DNA of 64,000 nucleotides, from assembly GCA_030386875.1 (NCBI GenBank), contig CM059575.1, forward strand, positions 43,430,859 to 43,494,858. The letters run 5' to 3'. Position 1 is the first letter of the stretch. Each line of letters begins with the position of its first letter. Both the position numbers and the translations under genes were made by a program. This DNA is from Morinoia aosen. Its lineage: Eukaryota; Arthropoda; Malacostraca; Amphipoda; Talitridae. The notes under the pieces were generated by a model that saw only the letters and a program-made list of their open reading frames with translations, did not search any database and was not told the origin of the DNA. Positions 7,901 through 34,717 of this stretch are shown here, in pieces.

Positions 7901-10900
7901 ATTCACAATTTAAACAATTTAAACAATTTATTTACCACAGGTGATACAGAGATAAAATGTTTCTTAAGTCTAGTACAATGGTCAAATTTGAGTATAGCTA
8001 CCTGTGGGCCCGAATAAGTTCAGTGACTTCTAGGGCATCCTACCATCAAGGTTAGTCTTAGGAGTACAATAATGTTTAACCTAATTCACTTAAACTAGAG
8101 ACGCATTAGACTGATCAATGAGATAATTAACTCGAAATTAGATACTTCATTTCACAATATAGTTCATATGGACTAGATTTAACAGTATATTCGACAAACG
8201 ATTCAAGAACAGACTGAAGATCGGCGAAATTAACCAAGGCAAATTACATTATTAGGACCAGTTATGTAGGGGACAAGATTTGACTCTGTGATCTTACACG
8301 ACTAGTAATCTGATAGGAAGTGAGACTCTTGACTTTTTTTGAATACCTTATAAGAATTACTTTCACGGATCTCCGCAGGTATTGAGTTCCAAGTTTTAGT
8401 TCCAACGAAGAGGATACTGTGTTGTGACCGAGCCTTTGAGTAATAAGGAAGCATGAATTTACTTCTATTTCGGGTTAAATGGTCGTGATGACTAGTTTGC
8501 GCAGTTAATAGTTGTTTTAGGCTATTGTCGCCATCATTTGTTAATGTTTTGTAAATGAAATTGCAAATGGAGATTTTGTAGAGATCCGAAAGCTTAAGTA
8601 TTCGTAAATTTTTGAATGAGTCATTTGTGTGAGCATTATATTCTAGATTCATTACCGCTCTTATGGCTCTTTTTTGCAGGGTAAAAATTTTGTTGGTTTT
8701 ATTTTTATCAGTTCCGTGCCATGCTTCTATTCCGTATTGCAAGTATGGTGAAATGAGCGTTCGGTAGAGCATTTGTAAGGCTGTTTCAGGCAGGAAATTT
8801 TTAACTTTATTTAGGATTCCGATAGATTTTGATAATTTAGAACTAATAGGAGCGATGTGCTCTTTAAAGGTTAGATGTTTGTCTATTATGATGCCGAGGG
8901 ATTTACTTGAGTTGGTTTCTTCGATTTCACCTTCGCCAATTTGAATGCGTGGGAGAGATATATTTTTCTTGTATGAGAATGTAATATATTTTGTTTTATC
9001 GATATTAAGGCTTATTTTATTATCTTTAAGCCACAATGAAACCTTATGAAGTTCATTATTTATACGCTCCGCCATCCTAGCGGGATTTTGGTCTGGAAGG
9101 ACCGCAGAAAGGGTACTGTGATCGGCAAAAAGTATGAATTTGAAGAATGATGTAGATTTAATGATATCATTGATAAAAATTAGAAATAGGAGAGGCCCAA
9201 GGACAGATCCTTGTGGAATCCCATGGCTAATTGTCTGTGGGTCTGATTTTGCGTCGTCAATGACAACGTATTGTTTCCGATTTGCTAAGTATGACCTAAA
9301 CCAATCATGGGCAGCCCCTCGAATGCCATAACAATGTAGTTTCGAGAGTAATACGTTATGGCCCACACAATCGAATGCTTTTCGAAAGTCAAGAAATACG
9401 TAGAAAACAAGCTTTCCTTCATCTATATTAGAATAAAGGTATTGCAAATGATTTAATACAGCTTGTGTCGTAGATTTCTTAGAACGAAAACCGTATTGTT
9501 TGTCGTAGAGGAAAGATTTTTGTTCAAAATACGAATACACTTTTTTATACACAATTTTCTCGAATATTTTGCTAATAATTGGTAGTACAGAGATATGTTT
9601 ATAATTGTTAATGCAGTTTTTATCACCATTTTTAAAAATAGGGGTGACTCTCGCAATTTTGAAAGAGTTGGGGAAGATACCTTGAGAAAGGGATTGGTTG
9701 GCAATATAAGGTATGCACGGTGCTATTATATCAGCTATAGCCTTAAGAACTTTAGCCGAAAAATTTTTCAATCCACTTGATTTATTTTTCAAGTTGTTTA
9801 TGCACGTAATTACATTGGAGGGATTAGTTGGCGTGAAAAAGAAAGAGTTAGGTTCACGGACATGGTCCATGTATTGCAAGTGGTCTCTGGGTTCACTGAA
9901 GACACTATCGGCTATATTTTTCCCTATGTTTACAAAAAAGTTGTTAAACACAGTTGCAATATCTTTTTTCTCGTGGTATTTTACATTTTTGTGAACGACG
10001 GACTCAATTGTTTTCGTAGTATTATTATTCGGTTTATAGCATGAATTAAGCAGGCGCCAAGTTTTTTTAATATCAGTTTTGTATTCAGTAAATTTACGCG
10101 TGAAGTAGTCTCGTTTTGAGGTTCGTATTTGATTTGTCATATGGTTCCTGAATCTGTTATACGTTACTTTAGATATTCGCCCTTCGTATAGTAAGGCTAG
10201 GTACGCTTGACGTTTCTTTATATTGATCACGATATCTTCAGTAATCCAGGGCTTTTGTATATTTTTCGGCGTAATTGTGCGGGTGATTATTGGACAACAC
10301 TGGTTATATGCGGTCGTTATAATTTCAGTTAAATTTAGTATTGCTTCATCAATGTTAATCGCATCATTGTCCCGTTCATAGACGTCTAATGGTGGCATTA
10401 ATTCTTCTAGAACAGTTCGCATTGTTCCCAAGTTGTATTCGTTTACACAACGAAATGAATAAGTATCAGCCTGTGGGCTGGTACAAGGATTATAGACATT
10501 TTTCTTGATGAGAAACACCGGGAAATGGTCAGATAAGTCAGAAATTATTATTCTGGTAAGAAAATCAGTCGGATCTAACATAAGAATATTATCGAGTAAC
10601 GTAGCCGATTCAGAAGCAACACGTGTAGGTTTCGTGATGATTGGAAGGAAGGAGCTAGACTGAAAAACATTTATGAAGTTTGAGATTTGCTCACAGCTAT
10701 CATATTGTGGAAGATCGTAGTTGAAATCCCCGCAGATTATTATGTCATTATATAGAGACTTGTTGAACTGATAAATAATGCTTTGAAGCTCGTTCAGGAA
10801 AGAGACGTTACAAGCTGTTGGGGGCCTATATACTGTCCCAAGCACAATCCGTTTATCATTTTTCGTTAGTTCTATAAATAAAGTCTCAATATGTTCACGA

Positions 10901-11186
10901 TTCATAGTTGCACTTAAAATGACTTTCGAAGATATATGTTTAGATATGTGCGTACTGATGCTACCACCACGTTTGTTACTACGGAGTGAATGATGGCTAT
11001 AATAGTTTTGAATTTGAATCAGGTCTTTAGATGAGTCGTCTAGCCAACTTTCGGTGAAACTGAGAACATCAAAATTGCTGTTCAGCTCAGTGATAGTACA
11101 AGATATTTCATCTATTTTCGGATAAATGGATCTACAGTTCCAACATAATAGAGAAAAATCGTTACAGGTCTTCCTCATCGATTCAC
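7901..11186 (-). mobile_element. LINE-1 family (CR1-like) non-LTR retrotransposon, copy 1, 5'-truncated
   Basis: It lies on the minus strand. The 3' end is at about 7907 with the tandem tail (TTTAAACAA)n rather than poly(A), a hallmark of CR1/L2-group LINEs. The 3' UTR at 7925-8300 matches that of copy 2 at 25400-25800, for example CCTGTGGGCCCGAATAAG. A candidate 6-bp target duplication ATTCAC lies at 7901-7906 and 11181-11186. That puts the 5' truncation point almost exactly at the first Met of the long ORF, so the open frame starts just inside the truncated element. Endonuclease and reverse transcriptase are present; ORF1 is absent. Confidence 0.9.
8302..11178 (-). CDS. LINE-1 ORF2: endonuclease and reverse transcriptase, catalytic box mutated
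   Basis: An uninterrupted 958-codon frame. Residues 1-230 form an exonuclease-endonuclease-phosphatase domain with LLCWNCRS, SFTESWLDD, GTVYRPP, IICGDFNYDL and SDLSDHFPVF. Residues ~490-760 form the reverse transcriptase with VARVTPIFKNGDK, FLDFRKAFDC and GIPQGSVLGPLLFLIFINDI. The C-terminal part contains GTKTWNSIPAEIRESNSYKVFK, typical of CR1-like ORF2. The enzyme would nick genomic DNA and prime cDNA synthesis from its own RNA. The catalytic FADD reads FADH here (codon complement at 9118-9120; GAC to CAC). Copy 2 keeps FADD. The protein would therefore lack an essential metal-binding Asp even though the frame is intact. The apparent start Met lies at the truncation junction, so the true N-terminus is missing. 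Confidence 0.93.
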   Translation of the reverse strand: MRKTCNDFSLLCWNCRSIYPKIDEISCTITELNSNFDVLSFTESWLDDSSKDLIQIQNYYSHHSLRSNKRGGSISTHISKHISSKVILSATMNREHIETLFIELTKNDKRIVLGTVYRPPTACNVSFLNELQSIIYQFNKSLYNDIIICGDFNYDLPQYDSCEQISNFINVFQSSSFLPIITKPTRVASESATLLDNILMLDPTDFLTRIIISDLSDHFPVFLIKKNVYNPCTSPQADTYSFRCVNEYNLGTMRTVLEELMPPLDVYERDNDAINIDEAILNLTEIITTAYNQCCPIITRTITPKNIQKPWITEDIVINIKKRQAYLALLYEGRISKVTYNRFRNHMTNQIRTSKRDYFTRKFTEYKTDIKKTWRLLNSCYKPNNNTTKTIESVVHKNVKYHEKKDIATVFNNFFVNIGKNIADSVFSEPRDHLQYMDHVREPNSFFFTPTNPSNVITCINNLKNKSSGLKNFSAKVLKAIADIIAPCIPYIANQSLSQGIFPNSFKIARVTPIFKNGDKNCINNYKHISVLPIISKIFEKIVYKKVYSYFEQKSFLYDKQYGFRSKKSTTQAVLNHLQYLYSNIDEGKLVFYVFLDFRKAFDCVGHNVLLSKLHCYGIRGAAHDWFRSYLANRKQYVVIDDAKSDPQTISHGIPQGSVLGPLLFLIFINDIIKSTSFFKFILFADHSTLSAVLPDQNPARMAERINNELHKVSLWLKDNKISLNIDKTKYITFSYKKNISLPRIQIGEGEIEETNSSKSLGIIIDKHLTFKEHIAPISSKLSKSIGILNKVKNFLPETALQMLYRTLISPYLQYGIEAWHGTDKNKTNKIFTLQKRAIRAVMNLEYNAHTNDSFKNLRILKLSDLYKISICNFIYKTLTNDGDNSLKQLLTAQTSHHDHLTRNRSKFMLPYYSKARSQHSILFVGTKTWNSIPAEIRESNSYKVFKKSQESHFLSDY

Positions 11187-11535
11187 CTTAATTCCAATCC
11201 TTAGTGAAGAACTTGAAGCTGCTCAACGACGCCAACCTTAAGATGGCCTGTGATGATATGCCTCCTACAAAAAATCGTGCTCCTTGGAACCGCAAACATC
11301 CTCCGGAAAGCTGTACGACTAAAATCCCGTACTTACAAACGGATACCCTGTCTCGCACACCCAGACCTGCACCAACACCGGCCGGGCAAGTCGGGAGCAA
11401 CACATCTTCGGCTGCGCTGTGGCGGTGGGAGGTCTGATCCTTAGGCTGCGAGATGTAGCTCTTATAAGAGACCCAACAAAGAATTAACAGCCACAACACC
11501 TTGGCTGTGAAGAAATTAATGATAATGATATTAAT
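11187..11535 (+). other. GC-richer unassigned fragment, possibly a LINE 3' end
   Basis: The sequence from CTTAATTCCAATCCTTAGTG through GGTGGGAGGTCTGATCCTTAG to GAAATTAATGATAATGATAT is GC-richer than its surroundings and ends in an (ATTAAT)-like tract, as LINE or SINE tails often do. No domain is recognisable in either of the overlapping ~75-100-codon frames. Confidence 0.25.
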
Positions 11536-14296: not shown

Positions 14297-15131
14297 ATTT
14301 TTTACTTGAATAGGTTCTCATTAAAAAAGGCCAAAAAAAGTATTTCCGTAATGTTGGCACAAAAGTTCAACACGTTGGTTTTTAAAAATTTCTTTGGAAA
14401 GAAGGCCTTATATTTAATTGGTGAAAAAATACAATATACGCACTGTAATATGTCTTACAGAGTCAACTGAAAGCAAAATTGTGAAAATGTTCTGCAGCAA
14501 GTTAGAAAAACATAAGAGGTAACACTCAACTGCCAAAGAAAAGGAAAAACATTGAGAGGGTTGATCGAAGTACCTTTTTTGGTATTCTCTCGAGAACGGA
14601 ATCCCTTGTTCCCTAGAACTGGCCTAAATGTGTTTTTGAAAGTAACTGTTACAGTTGCTTCTAAATCATGTTAAATTTCAAGTATAAACGAGTAGAAAGT
14701 GGTTTTAATGAAAAAAAACTCGTTGGAACTTCTCGAATCAAAGTGTTGAAGTTTGAAAATCAAAAAGTTAGTTGAGAGATTGTTTGATTTTGAAAATGAA
14801 CGAAGATTCTACAGTGGTGAGGCTTAAAGTGTTCGATGAGCACCTCAGTATCGCAAATTGACCATCGGGTAATATATCATATAATGAAATAATCACTAGA
14901 CTCAGCATGGTCCTTAACTGCTGAATGAAGTGGTTAGGATAATTGGGCATCTGTTCTGACACTGACCCCTCCAAAATATGAAAATATTGTAGATTGAACT
15001 TACAAACATTATTAATGTAGGAGACCGTGTTGGGTAAGCACATTTCCTCTTTAAAAAAATTCTATTTTTTAAAACGAGTGTGAACCGTAACTACTCGAAT
15101 GAAAAATTATATAAATGAGAATCGATTATTC
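14297..15131. other. No recognisable feature
   Basis: AT-rich sequence with only short chance frames. Nothing supports a gene, RNA or repeat. Confidence 0.35.
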
Positions 15132-15207
15132 ATCGTAAACTAATTTTCAATTAGAGTAAATTTTACAAGCTTGTAAAATTTACTCTAATTGAAAATTAGT
15201 TTACGAT
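15132..15207. repeat. 76-bp perfect palindrome
   Basis: ATCGTAAACTAATTTTCAAT begins a 38-bp arm that is followed, with no spacer, by its exact reverse complement, ending ATTGAAAATTAGTTTACGAT. The centre is the HindIII-like AAGCTT. The palindrome lies about 250 bp upstream of the repetitive acidic gene. It may be a recent foldback duplication or an assembly/repair artefact. Confidence 0.95.
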
Positions 15208-15453
15208 TAGTTTACGGGAAACAAGTTTTTATGCAGTTCAATTTAAAATGAGTCGAATACTGTAGAAATTGGTGCTTAACCCTCTGTGTACCAAAAGTAA
15301 AATAGTTTAGGAGAACGTTTTCCGATTAGTGAGGGTTACACTAACTTCTAATTTAACCTGCAGTCATTTCGTATTTGTGTAGTTATGAGTGACGATAGTC
15401 AGGGTATTCGCGCAATGACTATGCAGGTATAGGTAAACAGCAAATACAAAAAA

Positions 15454-16222
15454 ATGAAAGTAACACGTATGAATAAGCGAGACACAACTTATATACGTAG
15501 GTTTAATGTTTTACATGACTGCTCTTATGGCAAAAATAGTCCACTCATTTTTTATTCATTTACAGATACATCTCATTCTTTGACGAGAGCTCTACCAAAC
15601 TTTCTACTAAACGTAAAACGGCAGGCCAAAATGTGTCAAAGGAAGGCTGATGACTTTATTGAAATCTTCAAAGGCATCAAGTATACGTTGCCAAGTCTTC
15701 CGAAGTACGAGGACAATCTCTTCGGACAAAATATTTCCTCTTGCTTTATACTTTGTCAAAATGCTAACTGTAAACCTCTACAAATGGACCTTGGCCACGG
15801 TTCTAAGAACGGCTACCAAGGAGATATCCCGATACGAAATATTTCGGTTGCTCGCAGCGGGGGTTTTGGGGGACGCAATGCTGAGTATACATCAGCATTT
15901 TCTTCCCCAGGTGAGTGGCTATATCACGAGTGGTTACGGGCGTATAAGACCTCCATTCCATTTTCTTTCATGTTGCATTTGCCATTCCAAAAGCATTCCA
16001 CAATATGTTGAAGCAAGCCTTCTATGGAAGAATGCGTACAGCTACTGGGAACGATGCCGATCAGAAAAAGCTTTTCCCATTCATTATTTGACTTACTTCA
16101 TCGACGGCGAAGAACGCAGGAGCATAAATTTTCAGATTAAGTATAATGAAAGAAACTCTGTGGAACATAATGTTGATGGTAATCATGATGACGATGGCAG
16201 TGAAAAGTATGGAGGTGGCTAA
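15454..16222 (+). CDS. Candidate 5' coding part of the repetitive acidic gene, unknown product
   Basis: Two overlapping open frames cover this stretch. The first, from the ATG at 15454 to 16011, reads MKVTRMNKRDTTYIRRFNVL and later KADDFIEIFKGIKYTLPSLP. The second, open from 15650 to the TAA at 16220-16222, is most protein-like after about 15850: YFIDGEERRSINFQIKYNER, then HNVDGNHDDDGSEKYGGG. That tail runs directly into the acidic region downstream. A good splice-donor consensus, CCCCAG/GTGAGT, lies at 15903-15914. The switch between frames near 15900 could be an intron boundary or an indel. No known domain was recognised, and the start codon is uncertain. Confidence 0.45.
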
Positions 16223-16559
16223 GGAAGAAAGAACGGTGACAACGGTGTACGCGAATGTGGTGACCGAGATGAGAATGATGAGAGCGACGCTATAGTATCT
16301 CTGACGATATAGCCGAGCTTGCTAATTACCAACGTAGGAATGCTAAAATTGAAAGGTATGACAGGGACAATGTTGATAATGATGGGTGTCACAGCAATGA
16401 TTGTTTAATAAGCGGTGCCACAAATGAGCGGAGCAATCCTGATAACGAACGAGGTGATGATAAGGACGGTTATATTGACCATGACGTAACCAGTAATGAT
16501 TGTTGTGAAAAGAGCGGGAAAAAAACGAACAGCGATGATGGTGAAGAAAAGAGCGATGA

Positions 16560-17472
16560 TGGCGATGCAGAGAACGGAGACGGCGATGCAGAAAACGGAG
16601 ACGGCGATGCAGAGAACGGAGACGGCGATGCAGGGAACGAAGACAGCGATGCAGAGAACGGAAACGGCGATGATCATCGAAAAGAACGGAGACGGCGATG
16701 CAGAGAACGAAGACGGCGATGCAGAGAACGGAGACGGCGATGCAGAGAACGGAGACGGCGATGCAGAGAACAGAGACGGCGATGCAGAGAACGGAAACGG
16801 CGATGATCATCGAAAAGAACGGAGACGGCGATGCAGAGAACGAAGACGGCGATGCAGGGAACAGAGACGGCGATGCAGAGAACGAAGGCGGCGATGCAGA
16901 GAACAGAGACGGCGATGCAGTGAACGGAGACGGCGAAGCAGAAAACGGAGACGGCGATGCAGATAACGGAGACGGCAATGCAGAGAACGGAAATGGCAAT
17001 GCAGGGAACGGAGACGGCGTTTCAGAGAACGGAGACGGCGATGCAGGGAACGGAGACGGCGATGCAGAAAACGGAGACGGCGATGCAGAGAACAGAGACG
17101 GCGATGCAGAGAACGGAGATGGCAATGCAGGGAACGGCAACGGCGATGCAGAGAACGGAGACGGCGATGCAGAGAACGGAGACGGCGACGCAGAGAACGG
17201 AGACGGCGATGCGGAGAAACGGAGACGGCGATGCAGAGAACAGAGACAGCGATGCAGAGAACGGAGACGGCGATGCAGAGAACGGAGACGGCGATGCAGA
17301 GAACGGAGACGTCGATGCAGAGAACGGAGACGGCGATGCAGAGAACGGAGACGGCGATGCAGAGAACGGATACGGCATTGCAGAAAGGGAGACGGCGATG
17401 CAGAGAATGGAGACGGCGATGCAGAGAACGGAGACGGCGATGCAGAGAACGGAGACGGCGATGCAGAAAACG
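16560..17472 (+). repeat. 21-bp tandem array 1, unit GAGAACGGAGACGGCGATGC plus A
   Basis: About 43 copies of a 21-bp unit encode ENGDGDA in the acidic frame. Variants include GAACAGAGAC, GGGAACGGAGAC and two larger variants containing GATGATCATCGAAAAG that shift the frame. Unit-to-unit divergence is low, which indicates recent expansion or homogenisation. Confidence 0.97.
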
Positions 17473-18470
17473 GAGACGGCGAAGAGGAGAACGGAGCCGG
17501 CGAGGAGGAGAATGGAGACGGCGAGGAGGAGAACGGAGACTGCGAGGAGGAGAACGGAGACTGCGAGAAGGAGAACGGAAACGGCGAGGAGAAGAACGGA
17601 GACGGCGAGGAAGAGAACGGAGACGGCGAGGAGGGAGGAGAACGGAGACGGCTAGGAGGAGAACGGAGACGGTGAGGAGGAGAACGGAGACGGCGAGGAG
17701 GAGAACGGAGACGGCGAGGAGGAGAATGGAGACGGCGAGGAGGAGAACGGAGACGGCGAGGAGGAGAACGGAAACGGCGAGGAGGAGAACGGAGACGGCG
17801 AGGAGGAGAACGGAGACGGCGAGGAGGAGAACGGAGACGGCGAGGAGGAGAACGGAGACGGCGAGGAGGAGAATGGAGACGGCGAGGAGGAGAACGGAGA
17901 CGGCGAGGAGGAGAATGGAGACGGCGAGGAGGAGAACGGAGACGGCGAGGAGGAGAACGGAGACGGCGAGGAGGAGAACGGAGACGGCGAGGAGGAGAAT
18001 GGAGACGGCGAGGAGGAGAACGGAGACGGCGAGGAGGAGAATGGAGACGGTGAGGAGGAGAATGGAGACGGCGAGGAGGAGAACGGAGACGGCGAGGAGG
18101 AGAACGGAGACGGCGAGGAGGAGAACGGAGACGGCGAGGAGGAGAATGGAGACGGCGAGGAAGAGAACGGAGACGGCGAGGAGGAGAATGGAGACGGCGA
18201 GGAGGAGAATGGAGACGGCGAGGAGGAGAACGGAGACGGCGAGGAGGAGAACGGAGACGGCGAGGAGGAGAATGGAGACGGCGAGGAAGAGAACGGAGAC
18301 GGCGAGGAGGAGAATGGAGACGGCGAGGAGGAGAATGGAGACGGCGAGGAGGAGAACGGAGACGGCGAGGAGGAGAATGGAGACTGCGAGGACGAGAACG
18401 GAGACTGCGAGGAGGAGAACGGAGACGGCGAGGAGAAGAACGGAGACGGCGAGGAGGAGAACGGAGATAG
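17473..18470 (+). repeat. 21-bp tandem array 2, unit GAGGAGGAGAACGGAGACGG plus C
   Basis: About 47 copies of a 21-bp unit encode ENGDGEE. It shares the GAGAACGGAGACGGC core with array 1 but replaces GATGCA with GAGGAG. Common variants are AATGGAGAC and GGAGACTGC. The switch from array 1 occurs near 17475-17490 and is abrupt. Internal blocks are themselves duplicated, for example the variant order around 18140-18220 recurs at 18260-18340, suggesting multi-unit amplification. Confidence 0.97.
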
Positions 18471-18600
18471 CAATGAAGAGAGCAGTGATGGTGAAGATAT
18501 TGAAAGTGGCAATGATGGTGATGAGAGTAATACCGAATATGATGAGAATGCGCCGGTGGAAATAGACAAGGTGGTGTCATAGGTTGTGATCTAGAAAATA

Positions 18601-19857
18601 GGGCGATTGTCAACCAATCTGATGAAATGGCTTCAAATGGTTTTCCAACGAGGTGGAAGGATGTGGAATGGTTACCAACGAGGTGGAGGGGTGTGGAATG
18701 GTTACCAACGAGGTGGAGGGGTGTGGTAGGGTTACCTGCGAGGTGGAGGGGTGTGGAATGGTTACCAACGAGGTGGAGGAGTGTGGAATTCTTACCAACG
18801 TGGTGGAGGGGTGTGGAATGGTTACCAACGAGGTGGAGGGGTGTGGAATGGTTACCAACGAGGTGGAGGGGTGTGGAATGGTTACCAACGAGGTGGAGGG
18901 GTGTGGAATGGTTACCAACGAGGTGGAGGGGAATGGAATGGTTACCAACGAGGTGGAGGGGTGTGGAATGGTTACCAACGAGGTGGAGGGGTGTGGAATG
19001 GTAACCAACGAGTTGGAGGGGTGTGGAATGGTTACCAACGAGGTGGAGGGGTGTGGAATGGTTTCCAAGGAGCTAGAGGTGATAGGAATTGTAACCATGG
19101 AGTCGCTAATGGAATCTATGTTGCCGAGAATTTTTACGAAAGTGAAGAAGACTCTTTGCTCGATGACGAAAGTGAAAGCGAATTCAGGATTTCCTTTTAT
19201 CCTGATGAGAATTGCTCTAGCTCTGAAATATTTGAAATTGGGGGAATTGTCCAAGAAAGGTTTTACGCAGAACCTGATTCTTCAGATTTCTATTATACTA
19301 ATGAGGAAAGTGAAGATGACGGTTTCTTTCATGACAGTGACAGCGAATCTGATGAGCATGACGAACATTATGATAGCGAAGAAAACGATGATTATCCAGC
19401 AAATAATGGCGGACAAGAATACTACAACGTTCAATTATATTATGATGACGCTGAAAATGATGGTGATGAAATAGATAATGACAATAATATCCCCAGAGAC
19501 TTTCACTCTAACACGAGTGAAGATAGTAATGGGGATGACGATGGTGGTGAAATTGATAACGGAGACGACAATTTGGAAACTGTCACTTTATTAGGTCCTT
19601 TCCTCGTCATTCTTCCTTGTGACAATCCCTACTATCACGTTGGAATGATTGCTGAACATGTAAGCCGGGGTAATTACGAAGAACATCGGCAAAGCAACTC
19701 TGAAGGTCACGTGCCGCCCACGTCCATCGCCAGCGCGAACTTCGGGGCCGCGCGACGTCCGGTGTGGATGCCGGCGAAGGTGATGGCTCTCAGCAAGCCC
19801 AGGCGCGTCCTCCAGCCTCTAACGCAGGCAGCAGTTATACTGCAGTGTTGCTTATAG
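18601..19857 (+). CDS. Gly/Trp-rich 10-residue-repeat and acidic C-terminal region, unknown product
   Basis: The frame reads (GGVWNGYQRG)n over about 18640-19070. It continues without a break into a unique acidic, Ser/Tyr-rich region (NFYESEEDSLLDDESESEF, then FHDSDSESDEHDEHYDSEEN), a hydrophobic patch (TVTLLGPFLVILPCDNPYY), and ends at a TAA in 19855-19857. A TAG at 18727-18729 interrupts the repeat near its start, so the clean frame runs 18730-19857. Just upstream, 18573-18640 reads GVIGCDLENRAIVNQSDEMA in another frame, implying a further phase change. The shared acidic style suggests this is the 3' part of the same gene as 16223-18582. The last ~50 codons (19690-19830) are abruptly GC-rich. 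No homologous family was recognised. The composition resembles secreted structural or adhesive proteins, which is inference only. Confidence 0.55.
18640..19075 (+). repeat. 30-bp tandem array, unit GGAGGGGTGTGGAATGGTTA plus CCAACGAGGT
   Basis: About 14 units of 30 bp encode GGVWNGYQRG in the frame continuous with the downstream acidic region. Most units are identical. Exceptions include GTGTGGTAGGGTTACCTGCG at 18721-18740 (introduces the TAG) and GGGAATGGAATGG near 18930. Confidence 0.97.
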
Positions 19858-20031
19858 TTTTAGTAGAATCCATCCATCACTAACGAACAATGTCCACAGC
19901 TCTATATTTCCTCAGTTTGCACTAAACGCAATACATACGTCTGGATTGCCATTTCCGTTACATGGTTTTCGCGATTTGACTAATCGGATGCATTTGCTTC
20001 AAATAATAACCTTCAACGAATTCCACATGGA
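19858..20031. other. Spacer between repetitive gene and small secreted-protein-like ORF
   Basis: No ORF. This interval would hold the 3' UTR of the upstream gene or an intron and 5' UTR for the next. No firm polyadenylation or promoter signal was recognised. Confidence 0.3.
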
Positions 20032-20310
20032 ATGCTTCCTCAATTTCTATTCTTTGCTTGCTTTCTATTAGGTATTAGTTTAATCAGATCATTACCAGGT
20101 GCTGCTTTCATCTCAGGTGTCATCAATCCCAACCACCATTTCGTGCAATCATTCGGAAATTTCGGACTGGCTTGGACAAATTATGCTTGGGACATTATTG
20201 ATTATGGCATAAATGCCCTCGGAGAGCCCTATATGGTCACTGCCGACGGACTCTTGATTGGACTGAGCTTTTACTACGGACCACCTGCTTGTTGTTCGAG
20301 TGAAATCTAG
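20032..20310 (+). CDS. Small protein with signal-peptide-like N-terminus, unknown function
   Basis: A 92-codon frame starts MLPQFLFFACFLLGISLIRS, followed by LPGAAF, which fits a secretory signal or a membrane anchor with cleavage after the small residues. The mature part, with NPNHHFVQSFGNFGLAWTNY and GLSFYYGPPACCSSEI at its end, is rich in aromatic residues and contains two adjacent Cys and no known domain. It lies 175 bp downstream of the repetitive gene on the same strand and in the same phase, so it may instead be a 3' exon of that gene. I favour a small secreted protein, because the codons read well and the hydrophobic start is clear. There is no repeat partner in the window. Confidence 0.45.
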   Translation: MLPQFLFFACFLLGISLIRSLPGAAFISGVINPNHHFVQSFGNFGLAWTNYAWDIIDYGINALGEPYMVTADGLLIGLSFYYGPPACCSSEI

Positions 20311-21173
20311 TCAAGATGTTGTACTTATATTGTAGAATGAGTGTAAAATCCTTTTCAAAACGTTTAGACTCATTCTTTTGGAACGATCAACTGAAATGCG
20401 GAAATTTGAAAAATATTAGAAACATGCAAGGAAATAGAGAAGCGGTGGGCGTACTTTAATCTCTCACTTCACTGATTAAGTCAATAAAATATTACGTTTA
20501 TTTTCTGCGTCTTTTTAAAATATCAGATATAAGTCTTTTACATCGAGTTTAGTTTAGATAGAAAAGAAAGAAAAGAAAAACATTTTATATCCAATAAAGT
20601 ACAAACATGAAATGTCGATACATTGGTTTTTAAATCATCCTAACATTAACATCCTTAACTGATTATAATACATTGGTATCGTAATACCCGTGTAAAATGT
20701 TGAAACAAAAATGATTGACAGAAAAGCACAACAAAAATGAGTTCCTTTCCTTGCCTAATCTGATTTCGAACTAAGAGAACACAATCCTCGCGACGCTCGT
20801 TTGAAAAACACTTTCATTGGTGCGCACAACTATTCAAATAAAAGCGAAAAATGCATTCAAATACCTTAGCATAGAGACCCTTAATTGCTATTTATACATG
20901 GTTATCGTAATACCCATGTTAAGTGTTGAAACAAAGGATTTAGATCCTTAATTGCTATTCATACATAGTTATCATAGTACATATGATAATTATCGACACA
21001 GGAGTCAGAGAGAAGCACAAGTTAATAAACAATAAACAGTAATATGCTTAAAAGGATCGTTTGCATTTGGAGTGCGGCACTAAGTTTCAGTTTCTGTGTT
21101 TCAATTTCTAAGTTTCAATTCCTGAAATTTTGCTAGAAAGTAAAAATTCATTTTATTTTTCGTTTGCTAAGTC
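20311..21173. other. Intergenic, with a decayed ~60-bp triplicated motif
   Basis: Three diverged copies of CCTTAA-TG-TTAT-TACAT-GGTTATCGTAATACCCATGT followed by GTTGAAACAAA lie near 20650-20715, 20878-20930 and 20945-21000. No coding signal. TATTGTAGAATGAGTGTAAAA and AATAAAATATTACG near 20325 and 20483 could hold polyadenylation signals for the ORF just upstream. Confidence 0.4.
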
Positions 21174-21397
21174 TGTTATACTTCAGTATAACTGTAAGAG
21201 GAGTGACGTTAAGAATTGGACGAAGCGATTGGCCAACGTTCTTGTCCATAAAAAAATCTAGAAGAACCATAAGTCTGTGAATCAACGAAGGAGCGCATCA
21301 TGTCATCTATACCTTCTGGAAGAATCTTCGTTTGGACGTCGACGAAACAAGGAACCTCAACAGAAGATGCCAGGAACATCAACGAATAATCTTGTAT
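21174..21397 (+). repeat. Repeat X, copy A, left part
   Basis: The unit starts TGTTATACTTCAGTATAACT, a small foldback (GTTATAC...GTATAAC), and matches 33701-33926 almost base for base up to CGAATAATCTTGTAT. The match then resumes on the far side of LINE-1 copy 2 at 25806. Class unknown. The TG start is compatible with an LTR-type end, but no matching CA end or target duplication was found. Confidence 0.85.
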
Positions 21398-22459: not shown

Positions 22460-25399
22460 ATGACTGATCACGCTGATATATTAGATGAAATCGACCCGGA
22501 TCTCAATCATTTGAACAGAATATTTCCAAACCTAAACGACTCTGAAAACTGCAGATATACTAACATATCAAAATTCAACGAATCTATACGAATAACCCGG
22601 CAGGATTTTTCGCTACTGTGTTGGAACTGTAGGTCACTCTATCCAAAATTGGAAGAGATACAATGCACTATTACTGAACTTAAGTATACCTTAGATGTGA
22701 TTAGCTTCACCGAAAGCTGGCTAGATGACTCGACCAAAGACATGATTAAATTTGAAAATTATCATAGTTACCATTCGCGACGAAAAAACAAGCGAGGCGG
22801 GGGCATCAGTACATACATTTCTAAGCACATGGATTCGAGAATCATAGCAAGTGCAACACTGAATCAGGATCATATAGAATCATTATTCGTAGAACTGTCT
22901 AGAGATGGCAAACGAATTGTGCTTGGAACGGTGTATAGGCCGCCTACAGCCTGTCCTATATCCTTCCTTAATGAGCTTAATCGAATTATTTCTCAGTTCA
23001 ACAGGTCCTTCTACAATGACATAATAATATGCGGTGACTTCAACTATGATTTGCTGAAACATGAAAGCTATGAACCAATCTCTAATTTCTTAAATGCATT
23101 TCATTCTAAATCTTTCCTTCCGATCATCACAAAGCCAACACGAATAACCTCAGAATGTGCCACGCTGCTTGACAATATCTTTATGACAGACCCAAGTGAT
23201 TTTCTTGCTGGAATAATTACTTCTGACTTATCAGATCATTTTCCAGTTTTTCTTATTAAGAAAAATGTCTATCTTGCGTGCACCAAAGCACGGGCTGAAA
23301 CTTACTCATATCGTAAAATAAACGAATCAAATTTAGAAGAAATGCGCACCGTTCTAGAAGATTTAATGCCAACATTGCACATCACCCAACAAAACAATAA
23401 TGCAAGGAGCATTGATGAATCAGTAGTAAAGTTGACTGAAACTATAATGAACGCATACAACCAGTGTTGCCCAATTGTAACTCGTACAGTTACCCCGAAA
23501 AATAAACAAAAGCCCTGGATTACTAGAGACATCGTGATAAATATAAAGAAACGCCAAGCGTACCTAGCTCTCCTTTGCGAAGGGCGAATATCTAGAGAAA
23601 CATATAACCGATTCAGAAACTATGTGACAAACCAGATATGAACATCAAAAAAGAGCTACTTTACCCTCAAGTTTACTCAATTCAAAGCTGACGTTAAAAA
23701 GACTTGGCGCCTCCTTAACTCTTGTTATAAACCGAATAACGCCGAAAAAAAGAAAATTGGTTATATCACTCAAGATAATGTAAAATACCATGAGAAGAAT
23801 GAAATTGCTAATCTCTTCAACAACTTCTTTGTAAACGTAGGGAAAACTATAGCCAATGGTATTCCAAGTGAACCTACTGATCACGTGGAATTTATGGATC
23901 ATATTCGAGAACACAACTCCTTTTTCTTTACGCCTACAAACTCCTCCGATGTAATTGCGTGCATAAACAACATGAAAAATAAATCGAGTGGGTTACAAAC
24001 GTTTCCTACTAAAATACTTAAAATAATTGCTGATATTGTGGCCCCGCTGATATCCAATATTATTAACCAGTCTCTCTTACTAGGCCCTTTCCCGAACTCC
24101 GTCAAAGTTGCTAGAGTAACCCCTATCTTTAAAAATGGTGAAAAAACCTGTGTAAACAATTATCGACTTATCTCCATGTTACCAATTATTAGCAAGGTAT
24201 TCGAGAAAATTGTGTATAAAAAAGTGTACTCTTATTTTGAACAAAAATCATTTCTCTATGATAAACAATACGGCTTTCGCTGTAAAAAATCAACAAGACA
24301 GGCAATATTAAATCATTTACAATTCCTTTATTCTAATATAGATAACGGAAAGACTGTCTTCTCTGTATTTCTTGACTTTCGAAAGGCATTCGATTGTGTG
24401 GACCATAACATATTACTCTCGAAACTTCATTGTTATGGCATTCGTGAGGTTGCCCATGATTGGTTCAGATCATACCTAACAAATCGGAAGCAATACGTTG
24501 TCATTGACGACGCAAAATCGGACCCACAAAAAATTAGCCATGGAGTTCCACAAGGATCTGTTCTTGGGCCTCTCCTTTTTCTGATTTTTATCAATGATAT
24601 TATTAAATCTACATCATTTTTTAAATTCATACTTTTTGCCGATGACAGTACGCTTTCTGCGGTCCTTCCGAACGAAAATCCCACTACGATTGCGGAGAGT
24701 ATAAATAATGAACTCCATAAGGTTTCACTGTGGCTTAAAGCTAATAAAATAAGCCTCAATATCGATAAAACAAATTATATTACGTTCTCATACAAGAAAA
24801 ATATATCTCTACCATCCATTAAAATTGGCGAAGGTGAAATCAAAGAAACCAACTCATGTAAATTTCTGGGCATCATAATAGATAAACATCTGACCTTCAA
24901 AGAGCACATCACTCATATTAGTTCTAAATTATCAAAATCTATCGGAATCCTGAATAAAGTTAAAAATTTCCTGCCTGAAACAGCCTTACTAATGCTTTAT
25001 CGAACGCTCATTTCACCATACCTGCAATACGGAATAGAAGCATGGCATGGAACTGATAAAAATAAAACTAATATAATTTTTACTCTGCAAAAAAGAGCCA
25101 TCAGAGCGGTAAAGAACCTAGAATATAATGCTCACACAAATGATTCATTCAAAAATTTACAAATACTTAAACTCTCGGATCTCTACAAAATCTCCATCTG
25201 CAATTTCATCTACAAAACATTAGCTAATGATGGCGACAATAGCCTTCAACAGTTATTAACTGTTGTTGCCGCTCGCAACATAAGTATACTATTCGTTGGA
25301 ACTAAAACCTGGAACTCAATACCTGCGGAGATCCGTGAAAGTAATTCTTACAAGGTATTTAAAAGAAATCTTGAGTCTCACTTCTTATCAGAATACTAG
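22460..25399 (+). pseudogene. LINE-1 ORF2: endonuclease and reverse transcriptase with one nonsense codon
   Basis: A single frame of 980 codons is open except for TGA at 23639-23641, where copy 1 has CGA (Arg); this is a CpG-type transition. The N-terminus is MTDHADILDEIDPDLNHLNR. The endonuclease spans about residues 45-265 (LLCWNCRS, SFTESWLDD, GTVYRPP, IICGDFNYDL, SDLSDHFPVF). The reverse transcriptase spans ~540-770 (VARVTPIFKNGEK, FLDFRKAFDCVDH, GVPQGSVLGPLLFLIFINDI, and an intact FILFADDSTL). Near the C-terminus a short in-frame replacement (LLTVVAARNIS) shortens the segment relative to copy 1. With all catalytic motifs present, this copy is close to a complete ORF2 and inserted relatively recently. 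Confidence 0.93.
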
Positions 25400-33700: not shown

Positions 33701-34717
33701 TGTTATACTTCAGTATAACTGTAAGAGGAGTGACGTTAAGAATTGGACGAAGCGATTGGCCAACGTTCTTGTCCATAAAAAAAATTCTAGAAGAACCATA
33801 AGTCTGTGAATCAACGAAGGAGCGCATCATGTCATCTATACCTTCTGGAAGAATCTTCGTTTGGACGTCAACGAAACAAGGAACCTCAACAGAAGATGCC
33901 AGGAACATCAACGAATAATCTTGTATAATGTTTTACTTAATATTAATAGTGTTTTAATGGGGAATATTAGTATAAATATATTAACAAAAGTAAGTACATA
34001 TGTATTTGAATTGTTTTAGGAAATATCTTCCATTCATATATCAATCTTGTGATACCGTTATTACTAGTCAGCATCTCAAATGATCGCGTCGCCAAGAGCG
34101 TTGCTTTTGAAATGGGAGAATCAGTGAGGCCGTGACAACCGTTGAGTTAGGAGCTCAGAACATGTCGTGCTGGCCGGTCCCTTTGGGGGCTGGCTAGGGC
34201 TTTGTCTTTCTTGTAACATTTTGTAACCAAGTGAACTACGCATATATTATCAAGTAACGTAAATTAATTGGTTGTCACGGAACACATATTAGCTACCTTT
34301 CCTGGAGTCCTCAGATAAAATAAGTCCCATTCATATAACACTTATCCGTTCTAATGCATCCTCATTTCTTGCCTCTGTGTAATAGGTAATTCATAGAAAA
34401 ATTCAGCGTACATCCGATGTTTTATTAAATGTGACTAGGTGCGTTAGATCCATTTTGATTATTTCTGTGTCAATATTAGAATATAAATAATGATGTCAAT
34501 GCCTCGTAAATTTCCCCTTAAATAAGAAAAGAATTATCGTTTCTGTTGAAGAGAAAAGGTTAACCCGCTACCATATTAATTGTTTATTAAATAACGTAAA
34601 ATACTTATTATATTGGAGACGTTGAAAAGTCTCGATTGATCTTTATTGACAAAATATAATAATTGTGGCCTTAAGTCACGACGATTATAAGCATAAATGA
34701 CAGTAGCAGCGCCATGA
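33701..34717 (+). repeat. Repeat X, copy B (carries the LINE-1 empty site)
   Basis: It starts TGTTATACTTCAGTATAACT and matches 21174-21397 and then 25806-26630 without the 4.4 kb LINE. At 33911-33930 it reads CGAATAATCTTGTATAATGT. It is therefore an independent copy of X that never received, or precedes, the LINE-1 insertion. Differences from copy A are sparse. Confidence 0.93.

What the first reader, a model, noticed from the sequence alone, without database searches (positions are those of the whole stretch)
15454..19857. An acidic then Gly/Trp repeat gene built from 7- and 10-residue units, with no known family
Unique acidic flanks, two related 21-bp arrays (ENGDGDA then ENGDGEE) and a 30-bp array (GGVWNGYQRG) lie in one direction. 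They are followed by a unique Ser/Asp/Tyr-rich tail with a clean stop. This modular layout resembles secreted structural, adhesive or mineral-associated proteins, but I recognise no family. It is the strongest candidate here for an undescribed host protein. Seen: arrays, frames, acidic composition. Inferred: that it is one gene, and its role.
Basis: partly seen in the sequence, partly recalled or inferred. Interest (0 to 1): 0.75.

Follow-up and report, generated by a model that had tools for sequence, protein, structure and literature searches.

The report
Decayed acidic-repeat gene, probably crustacean
The repeats are real, but they look like the remains of a single-copy animal gene for an acidic repeat protein that is now broken by stop codons and frameshifts, rather than a working new structural-protein gene.

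Summary
The arrays are real: 21-bp units at 16561-18481 (90.6 copies) and 30-bp units at 18636-19079 (14.8 copies). Unique segments around them stay open beyond chance, so a coding origin is likely. But the locus does not read as one gene. Reading on meets stops at 16220, 16804, 17653, 18580 and 18727. The acidic frame jumps inside the 21-bp array by +7 (present twice), +1, -1 and +4, and three more times by eye in the flanks. Distinct substitutions in the arrays show no silent-site excess. GC3 of the main unique segments is below that of sampled host exons. Pfam, NCBIfam, PDB and viral-contig searches of the segments tried found no relative, and the host genome held no convincing paralogue of them. 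TTAGG repeats and many GH7 cellulase exons suggest a peracarid crustacean host (partly recall). Best reading: a decayed, single-copy, lineage-restricted gene for an acidic repeat protein, whose arrays now drift as minisatellites. A working gene hidden by assembly error, a broken allele or unusual splicing is not excluded: no reads, RNA or related genome were available.

The parts
15566..15910 (+). Candidate exon E1 (reading 15568-15909, 114 aa, four Cys), acceptor ttcatttacag and donor CAG|GTGAGT
   Evidence: Sequence; the only donor scoring over 5 in 14.0-20.8 kb in my rough scan; frame open in 58 of 20,000 shuffles for the exon, 0 of 20,000 for the whole ORF 15433-16008; single strong match in the genome, itself. 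Exon status inferred.
16014..16219 (+). Candidate second exon E2 in frame 2, ended by TAA at 16220; acidic frame-2 reading goes on past the stop to about 16300
   Evidence: frame open in 149 of 20,000 shuffles; one match in the genome, itself
16282..16560 (+). Unique acidic segment in frame 1, continuous with the first repeats; read on, it stops at TGA 16804
   Evidence: 16282-16548 open in 10 of 20,000 shuffles; DNA of 16303-16560 has one match in the genome, itself; stop
16561..17465 (+). 21-bp array, ENGDGDA units, with frame changes at 16654 and 16787 (+7 each, one event copied by duplication), 17214 (+1), 17383 (-1)
17466..18481 (+). 21-bp array, ENGDGEE units, with a +4 change at 17613 and TAG at 17653; open in frame 1 from 17656 to TAG 18580
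18482..18635 (+). Unique acidic spacer; reading shifts from frame 1 to frame 0 near 18545-18580, and back to frame 1 near 18641
   Evidence: Three-frame translation, judged by eye
18636..19079 (+).
   Evidence: the degenerate unit pattern matches 8 times in the genome, all here
19080..19857 (+). Unique Asp/Glu/Ser/Tyr-rich tail with TAG at 19855; the last 165 bp or so are GC-richer and not acidic
   Evidence: Open in 0 of 20,000 shuffles; one match in the genome, itself; GC3 0.32 for 19081-19689 and 0.73 for 19690-19854
20029..20310 (+). Separate 93-aa ORF with a hydrophobic start; a further exon, a separate small secreted peptide gene, or chance. Link to the repeats not shown
   Evidence: Open in 222 of 20,000 shuffles; one match in the genome, itself (as 19984-20307); poor model, mean pLDDT 56.1

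Best explanation
The locus is the decayed remnant of a single-copy, lineage-restricted host gene. It once encoded a protein with a unique Cys-containing N-terminal part, a long Asp/Glu/Asn/Gly repeat region, a Gly/Trp/Tyr repeat block and an acidic tail. Nonsense codons and frameshifts now break it, and its arrays gain, lose and mutate units as a minisatellite. Shown: the arrays, the open unique segments, the stops, the frame changes, no paralogue found, no silent-site excess among distinct changes. Inferred: that the segments were once one transcript, that it was translated, and that function is lost. If the ancestral protein worked, its composition suggests an extended, disordered, calcium-binding or matrix protein; that step is analogy only.
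For: Unique segments open beyond chance. The acidic frame runs from unique flank into repeats at both ends of the 21-bp array, and the Gly/Trp frame runs into the tail. Nonsense codons at 16220, 17653 and 18727, and reading on from each block stops. Frame changes of +7 (twice, by duplication), +1, -1 and +4 within the array and three in unique DNA by eye. ORFs 16282-16803 and 17656-18579 have no ATG, and 18730-19854 has its first at codon 306 of 375. Distinct silent changes 6 of 20, 3 of 10 and 4 of 15 in the three unit types, against 4.8, 3.2 and 3.6 expected. GC3 0.32-0.40 in E1, E2, 16282-16548 and the tail, against 0.43-0.85 (5-95%) in 24 sampled host exons.
Against: No intact relative was found, so the lesions are judged only from continuity of the acidic frame. 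The frame changes in the 21-bp array add up to 18, so its two flanks end up in the same frame. The tail is still open over 258 codons and 39 consecutive ENGDGEE units (17659 to 18477) are free of indels and stops, which could mean constraint or recent expansion. Counted by occurrence, the ENGDGEE units have 19 silent of 31 changes, though 14 are one change. Two other array ORFs, 16490-16966 and 16674-17675, do contain ATGs just before acidic repeats. The tests of distinct changes have little power. Codon scores also failed to single out the open frame over the other frames.
Confidence: 0.62

Rival explanations
1. It is a working gene for a secreted acidic and Gly/Trp matrix, silk or mineral-associated protein. 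The lesions are sequencing or assembly errors in a hard repeat, are removed by introns, or mark a broken allele that segregates with intact ones.
For: Tail open over 258 codons; a long indel-free run of ENGDGEE units and frame changes that sum to a multiple of three; good splice signals at 15566 and 15911; some changes are one-base indels beside short runs of A or T, the kind that long-read errors make (recall).
Against: Lesions also lie in unique DNA (16220, near 16300, near 18560); the +7 and +4 changes are not run-length errors; no other donor scored over 5 in a rough scan; no silent-site excess among distinct changes.
Confidence: 0.25
2. The arrays never were coding: they are GA-rich and GGT-rich minisatellites beside short fortuitous ORFs.
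For: Array variation looks neutral in every frame; several frames are open by composition alone; the unique segments have codon scores near those of non-coding DNA.
Against: The unique tail, the ORF 15433-16008 and 16282-16548 are open far beyond shuffled DNA, and acidic frames join repeats to unique flanks.
Confidence: 0.08
3. It is a fragment of a transposable element or of an integrated virus.
For: Retroelement ORFs lie on both sides, and a 76-bp perfect palindrome lies upstream at 15132-15207.
Against: The segments tried have one strong match each in a 2.0-Gb genome, themselves; no relatives of two segments in viral contigs; no transposon or viral domain in Pfam.
Confidence: 0.05

Closest known systems
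Unitary (single-copy) pseudogenes of fast-evolving repeat proteins (general kind, recalled)
   Same: Single copy, stops and frameshifts, arrays drifting without silent-site excess
   Different: No intact orthologue was available to prove that it once worked
Orchestin and other acidic crustacean mineral-matrix proteins (PMC3335408, passages seen)
   Same: Acidic and Ser-containing tail; likely peracarid host; the review describes orchestin as a phosphorylated calcium-binding protein of an amphipod
   Different: No sequence comparison was made (orchestin was not held); this locus is built of 7- and 10-residue units and is broken
Variable 30/33-bp repeats in prawn C-type lectins, Rlecs (PMC7536079, listing and start of abstract only)
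   Same: 30-bp coding-length units in a crustacean
   Different: No Pfam family, so no C-type lectin domain, was found here; unit sequences were not compared

Membership tests
Pseudogene (unitary) | Disabling lesions relative to an intact gene | tested here: inconclusive
   Three nonsense codons and seven frame changes judged from continuity of the acidic frame; no intact relative to compare with
Pseudogene (unitary) | No purifying selection on the protein | tested here: inconclusive
   No silent-site excess among distinct changes in the arrays; few changes, and unique parts not testable without relatives
Pseudogene (unitary) | No functional paralogue in the genome | tested here: met
   Five segments searched, one strong match each, itself; E1 also has a weak 35% match (E 0.04, with stops) at two identical places. 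The 21-bp array was not searched
Pseudogene (unitary) | No translated product | not testable with these tools
   No RNA or proteome data
Acidic mineral-matrix proteins such as orchestin | Phosphorylation and calcium binding | not testable with these tools
   Needs a protein
Acidic mineral-matrix proteins such as orchestin | Sequence similarity to a known member | not tested
   No member sequence was held
Any Pfam or NCBIfam family, or a protein of known structure | Profile or sequence match | tested here: not met
   Pfam: 0 families at E up to 10 for the 7 queries from this locus, of 10 queries in the call; NCBIfam 0 for 4; PDB none for E1 and tail; three chance-level PDB hits, best E 0.16, for 20083-20307

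The most novel reading that the evidence does not exclude
A living, lineage-specific gene for a very long acidic and Gly/Trp/Tyr repeat matrix protein of a peracarid crustacean, seen here as a broken or mis-assembled allele, with intact alleles segregating or present in sister species.
Probability: 0.2. Interest if true: 0.5.

Novelty: new member of a known kind. Interest (0 to 1): 0.22.

Why it matters
It shows how a repeat-built orphan gene may decay while its arrays go on changing as minisatellites, and warns that long open frames in GA-rich arrays are weak evidence of a gene. If intact alleles exist, the locus would be a new candidate matrix protein.

Tried and rejected
Single-sequence structure prediction of E1 (mean pLDDT 38.4) and of 20029-20307 (56.1) was too poor for a fold search, and none was run. 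The first codon-usage run was wrong because minus-strand loci had not been turned; one search replaces it. One search used 24 of the 33 loci L016-L048 (23 kinase exons, one GH7 exon): left out were three on contig C27 (bacterial-looking), one with three stops and five near-duplicates; three that were kept have one stop each, dropped from the count. A weak genome match of E1 at two identical places (35% identity, E 0.04, with stops; alignment) was taken as chance. Joining the tail to 20029-20310 by a donor at 19660 was rejected because none of the acceptors that I looked at has the right phase (by eye). Naming the host species failed: four paper searches (listings only) did not settle it. Silk and mineral roles were kept only as analogy. 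PDB was not searched with E2 or 16282-16548, and viral contigs were searched with E1 and the tail only.

Full report
What is there. TRF gives a 21-bp array at 16561-18481 and a 30-bp array at 18636-19079. Aligning 16543-18490 to the 21-bp unit gave 93 rows, the first and last partial. ENGDGDA units run to about 17466 and ENGDGEE units follow. Unique acidic DNA lies before the arrays (16282-16560), between them (18482-18635) and after them (19080-19857).

Is it more than chance? Of 20,000 dinucleotide shuffles each, the observed frame stayed open in 0 for the tail 19081-19854, 0 for the ORF 15433-16008, 10 for 16282-16548, 58 for the exon candidate 15568-15909, 149 for 16016-16219, 623 for 18478-18579 and 222 for 20029-20307. 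So the larger unique segments probably were coding. Inside the arrays openness means little: long ORFs occur in all three + frames and on the - strand.

Is it one gene? As assembled, no. Reading on from each block meets stops at 16009, 16220, 16804, 16964, 17653, 17673, 18580, 18727, 19002 and 19855. Nonsense codons in the acidic or Gly/Trp frame lie at 16220, 17653 and 18727. Frame changes in the 21-bp array are +7 in the units at 16654 and 16787 (one event copied by duplication), +1 at 17214, -1 at 17383 and +4 at 17613. Three more were judged by eye from the three-frame translation: between 16220 and about 16305, near 18545-18580 and near 18641. That makes seven distinct frame changes and three nonsense codons. 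The array's changes add up to 18, so the flanks end in the same frame, which has one chance in three. ORFs 16282-16803 and 17656-18579 have no Met and 18730-19854 has its first at codon 306; two other array ORFs (16490-16966, 16674-17675) do contain Met. A rough splice-site scan with weights that I recalled found one donor scoring over 5 between 14.0 and 20.8 kb, at 15911, so introns do not obviously remove the lesions.

Selection. In the protein frame, distinct silent changes were 6 of 20 (4.8 expected), 3 of 10 (3.2) and 4 of 15 (3.6) for the ENGDGDA, ENGDGEE and 30-bp units; the other two frames were not clearly different. Numbers are small. By occurrence the ENGDGEE units show 19 silent of 31 changes, of which 14 are one change.

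Codon usage. Against 24 host exons (4,996 codons), E1, E2, 16282-16548 and the tail 19081-19689 have GC3 0.32-0.40, below the 5-95% range of 0.43-0.85. Their silent-codon scores (-0.07 to -0.20) are at or below the exons' 5% point (-0.06), near those of local LINE ORFs (-0.15 and -0.17). The score does not single out the open frame from the other frames. The end of the tail (19690-19854) is the exception, with GC3 0.73 and a score of 0.29 (all).

Relatives. Pfam gave 0 families for the 7 queries from this locus, NCBIfam 0 for 4, PDB none for E1 and tail and three chance-level hits for 20083-20307 (best E 0.16). Viral contigs held none for E1 and tail. In the host genome each of five segments has one strong match, itself; E1 also has a weak match (35%, E 0.04) at two identical places. 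These searches score only the best candidates. The 30-bp unit pattern matches 8 times, all in this array.

Host and setting. The genome has 1.99 Gb in 29 contigs, long TTAGG runs (6,769 forward and 8,723 reverse matches to six repeats, 0 in the control), a mitochondrial COX1 with TGA in frame and 46 GH7 exon matches, 36 of them at 59.49-59.79 Mb of contig C24. The best PDB match of one GH7 exon is 4gwa, 349 bits, which I recall as the enzyme of the marine isopod Limnoria. This suggests an isopod or amphipod; the step rests partly on recall. Reverse-transcriptase ORFs lie on both sides of the locus (8305-11187 and 22460-25396).

How it most likely works. I read it as a decayed single-copy gene: the lesions are shown, the former coding function and its loss are inferred. 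The arrays change by unit gain and loss as a minisatellite. The main rival, a working gene hidden by assembly error, a broken allele or unusual splicing, keeps about one chance in four because no reads, RNA or sister genome were available. The only literature that I read for role is passages of one review (PMC3335408); the other paper searches were seen as listings.

Noticed in passing
15132-15207: A 76-bp perfect palindrome just upstream of the locus; a genome search of 14900-15565 found it only here.
   Followed up: partly
20029-20310: A 93-aa ORF with a hydrophobic start like a signal peptide and a polyA signal at 20483; no family, one copy in the genome.
   Followed up: partly
L007-L010 (contig C27, 55-66 Mb): Contig C27 holds several COX1 genes without TGA codons; the first 300 bases of L007 look bacterial. 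Probably bacterial contigs within the assembly.
   Followed up: no
L046-L048 (contig C24): A large cluster of GH7 cellulase exons: 36 of 46 matches lie at 59.49-59.79 Mb of C24.
   Followed up: partly
L014:2510-6647: Mitochondrial contig with tRNA-like folds spaced by about 161 or 209 bases upstream of COX1, suggesting a tandem repeat.
   Followed up: no
21174-21397 and 33701-33926: Two pieces 98.7% identical, each beside a reverse-transcriptase ORF, pointing to recent retroelement activity.
   Followed up: no
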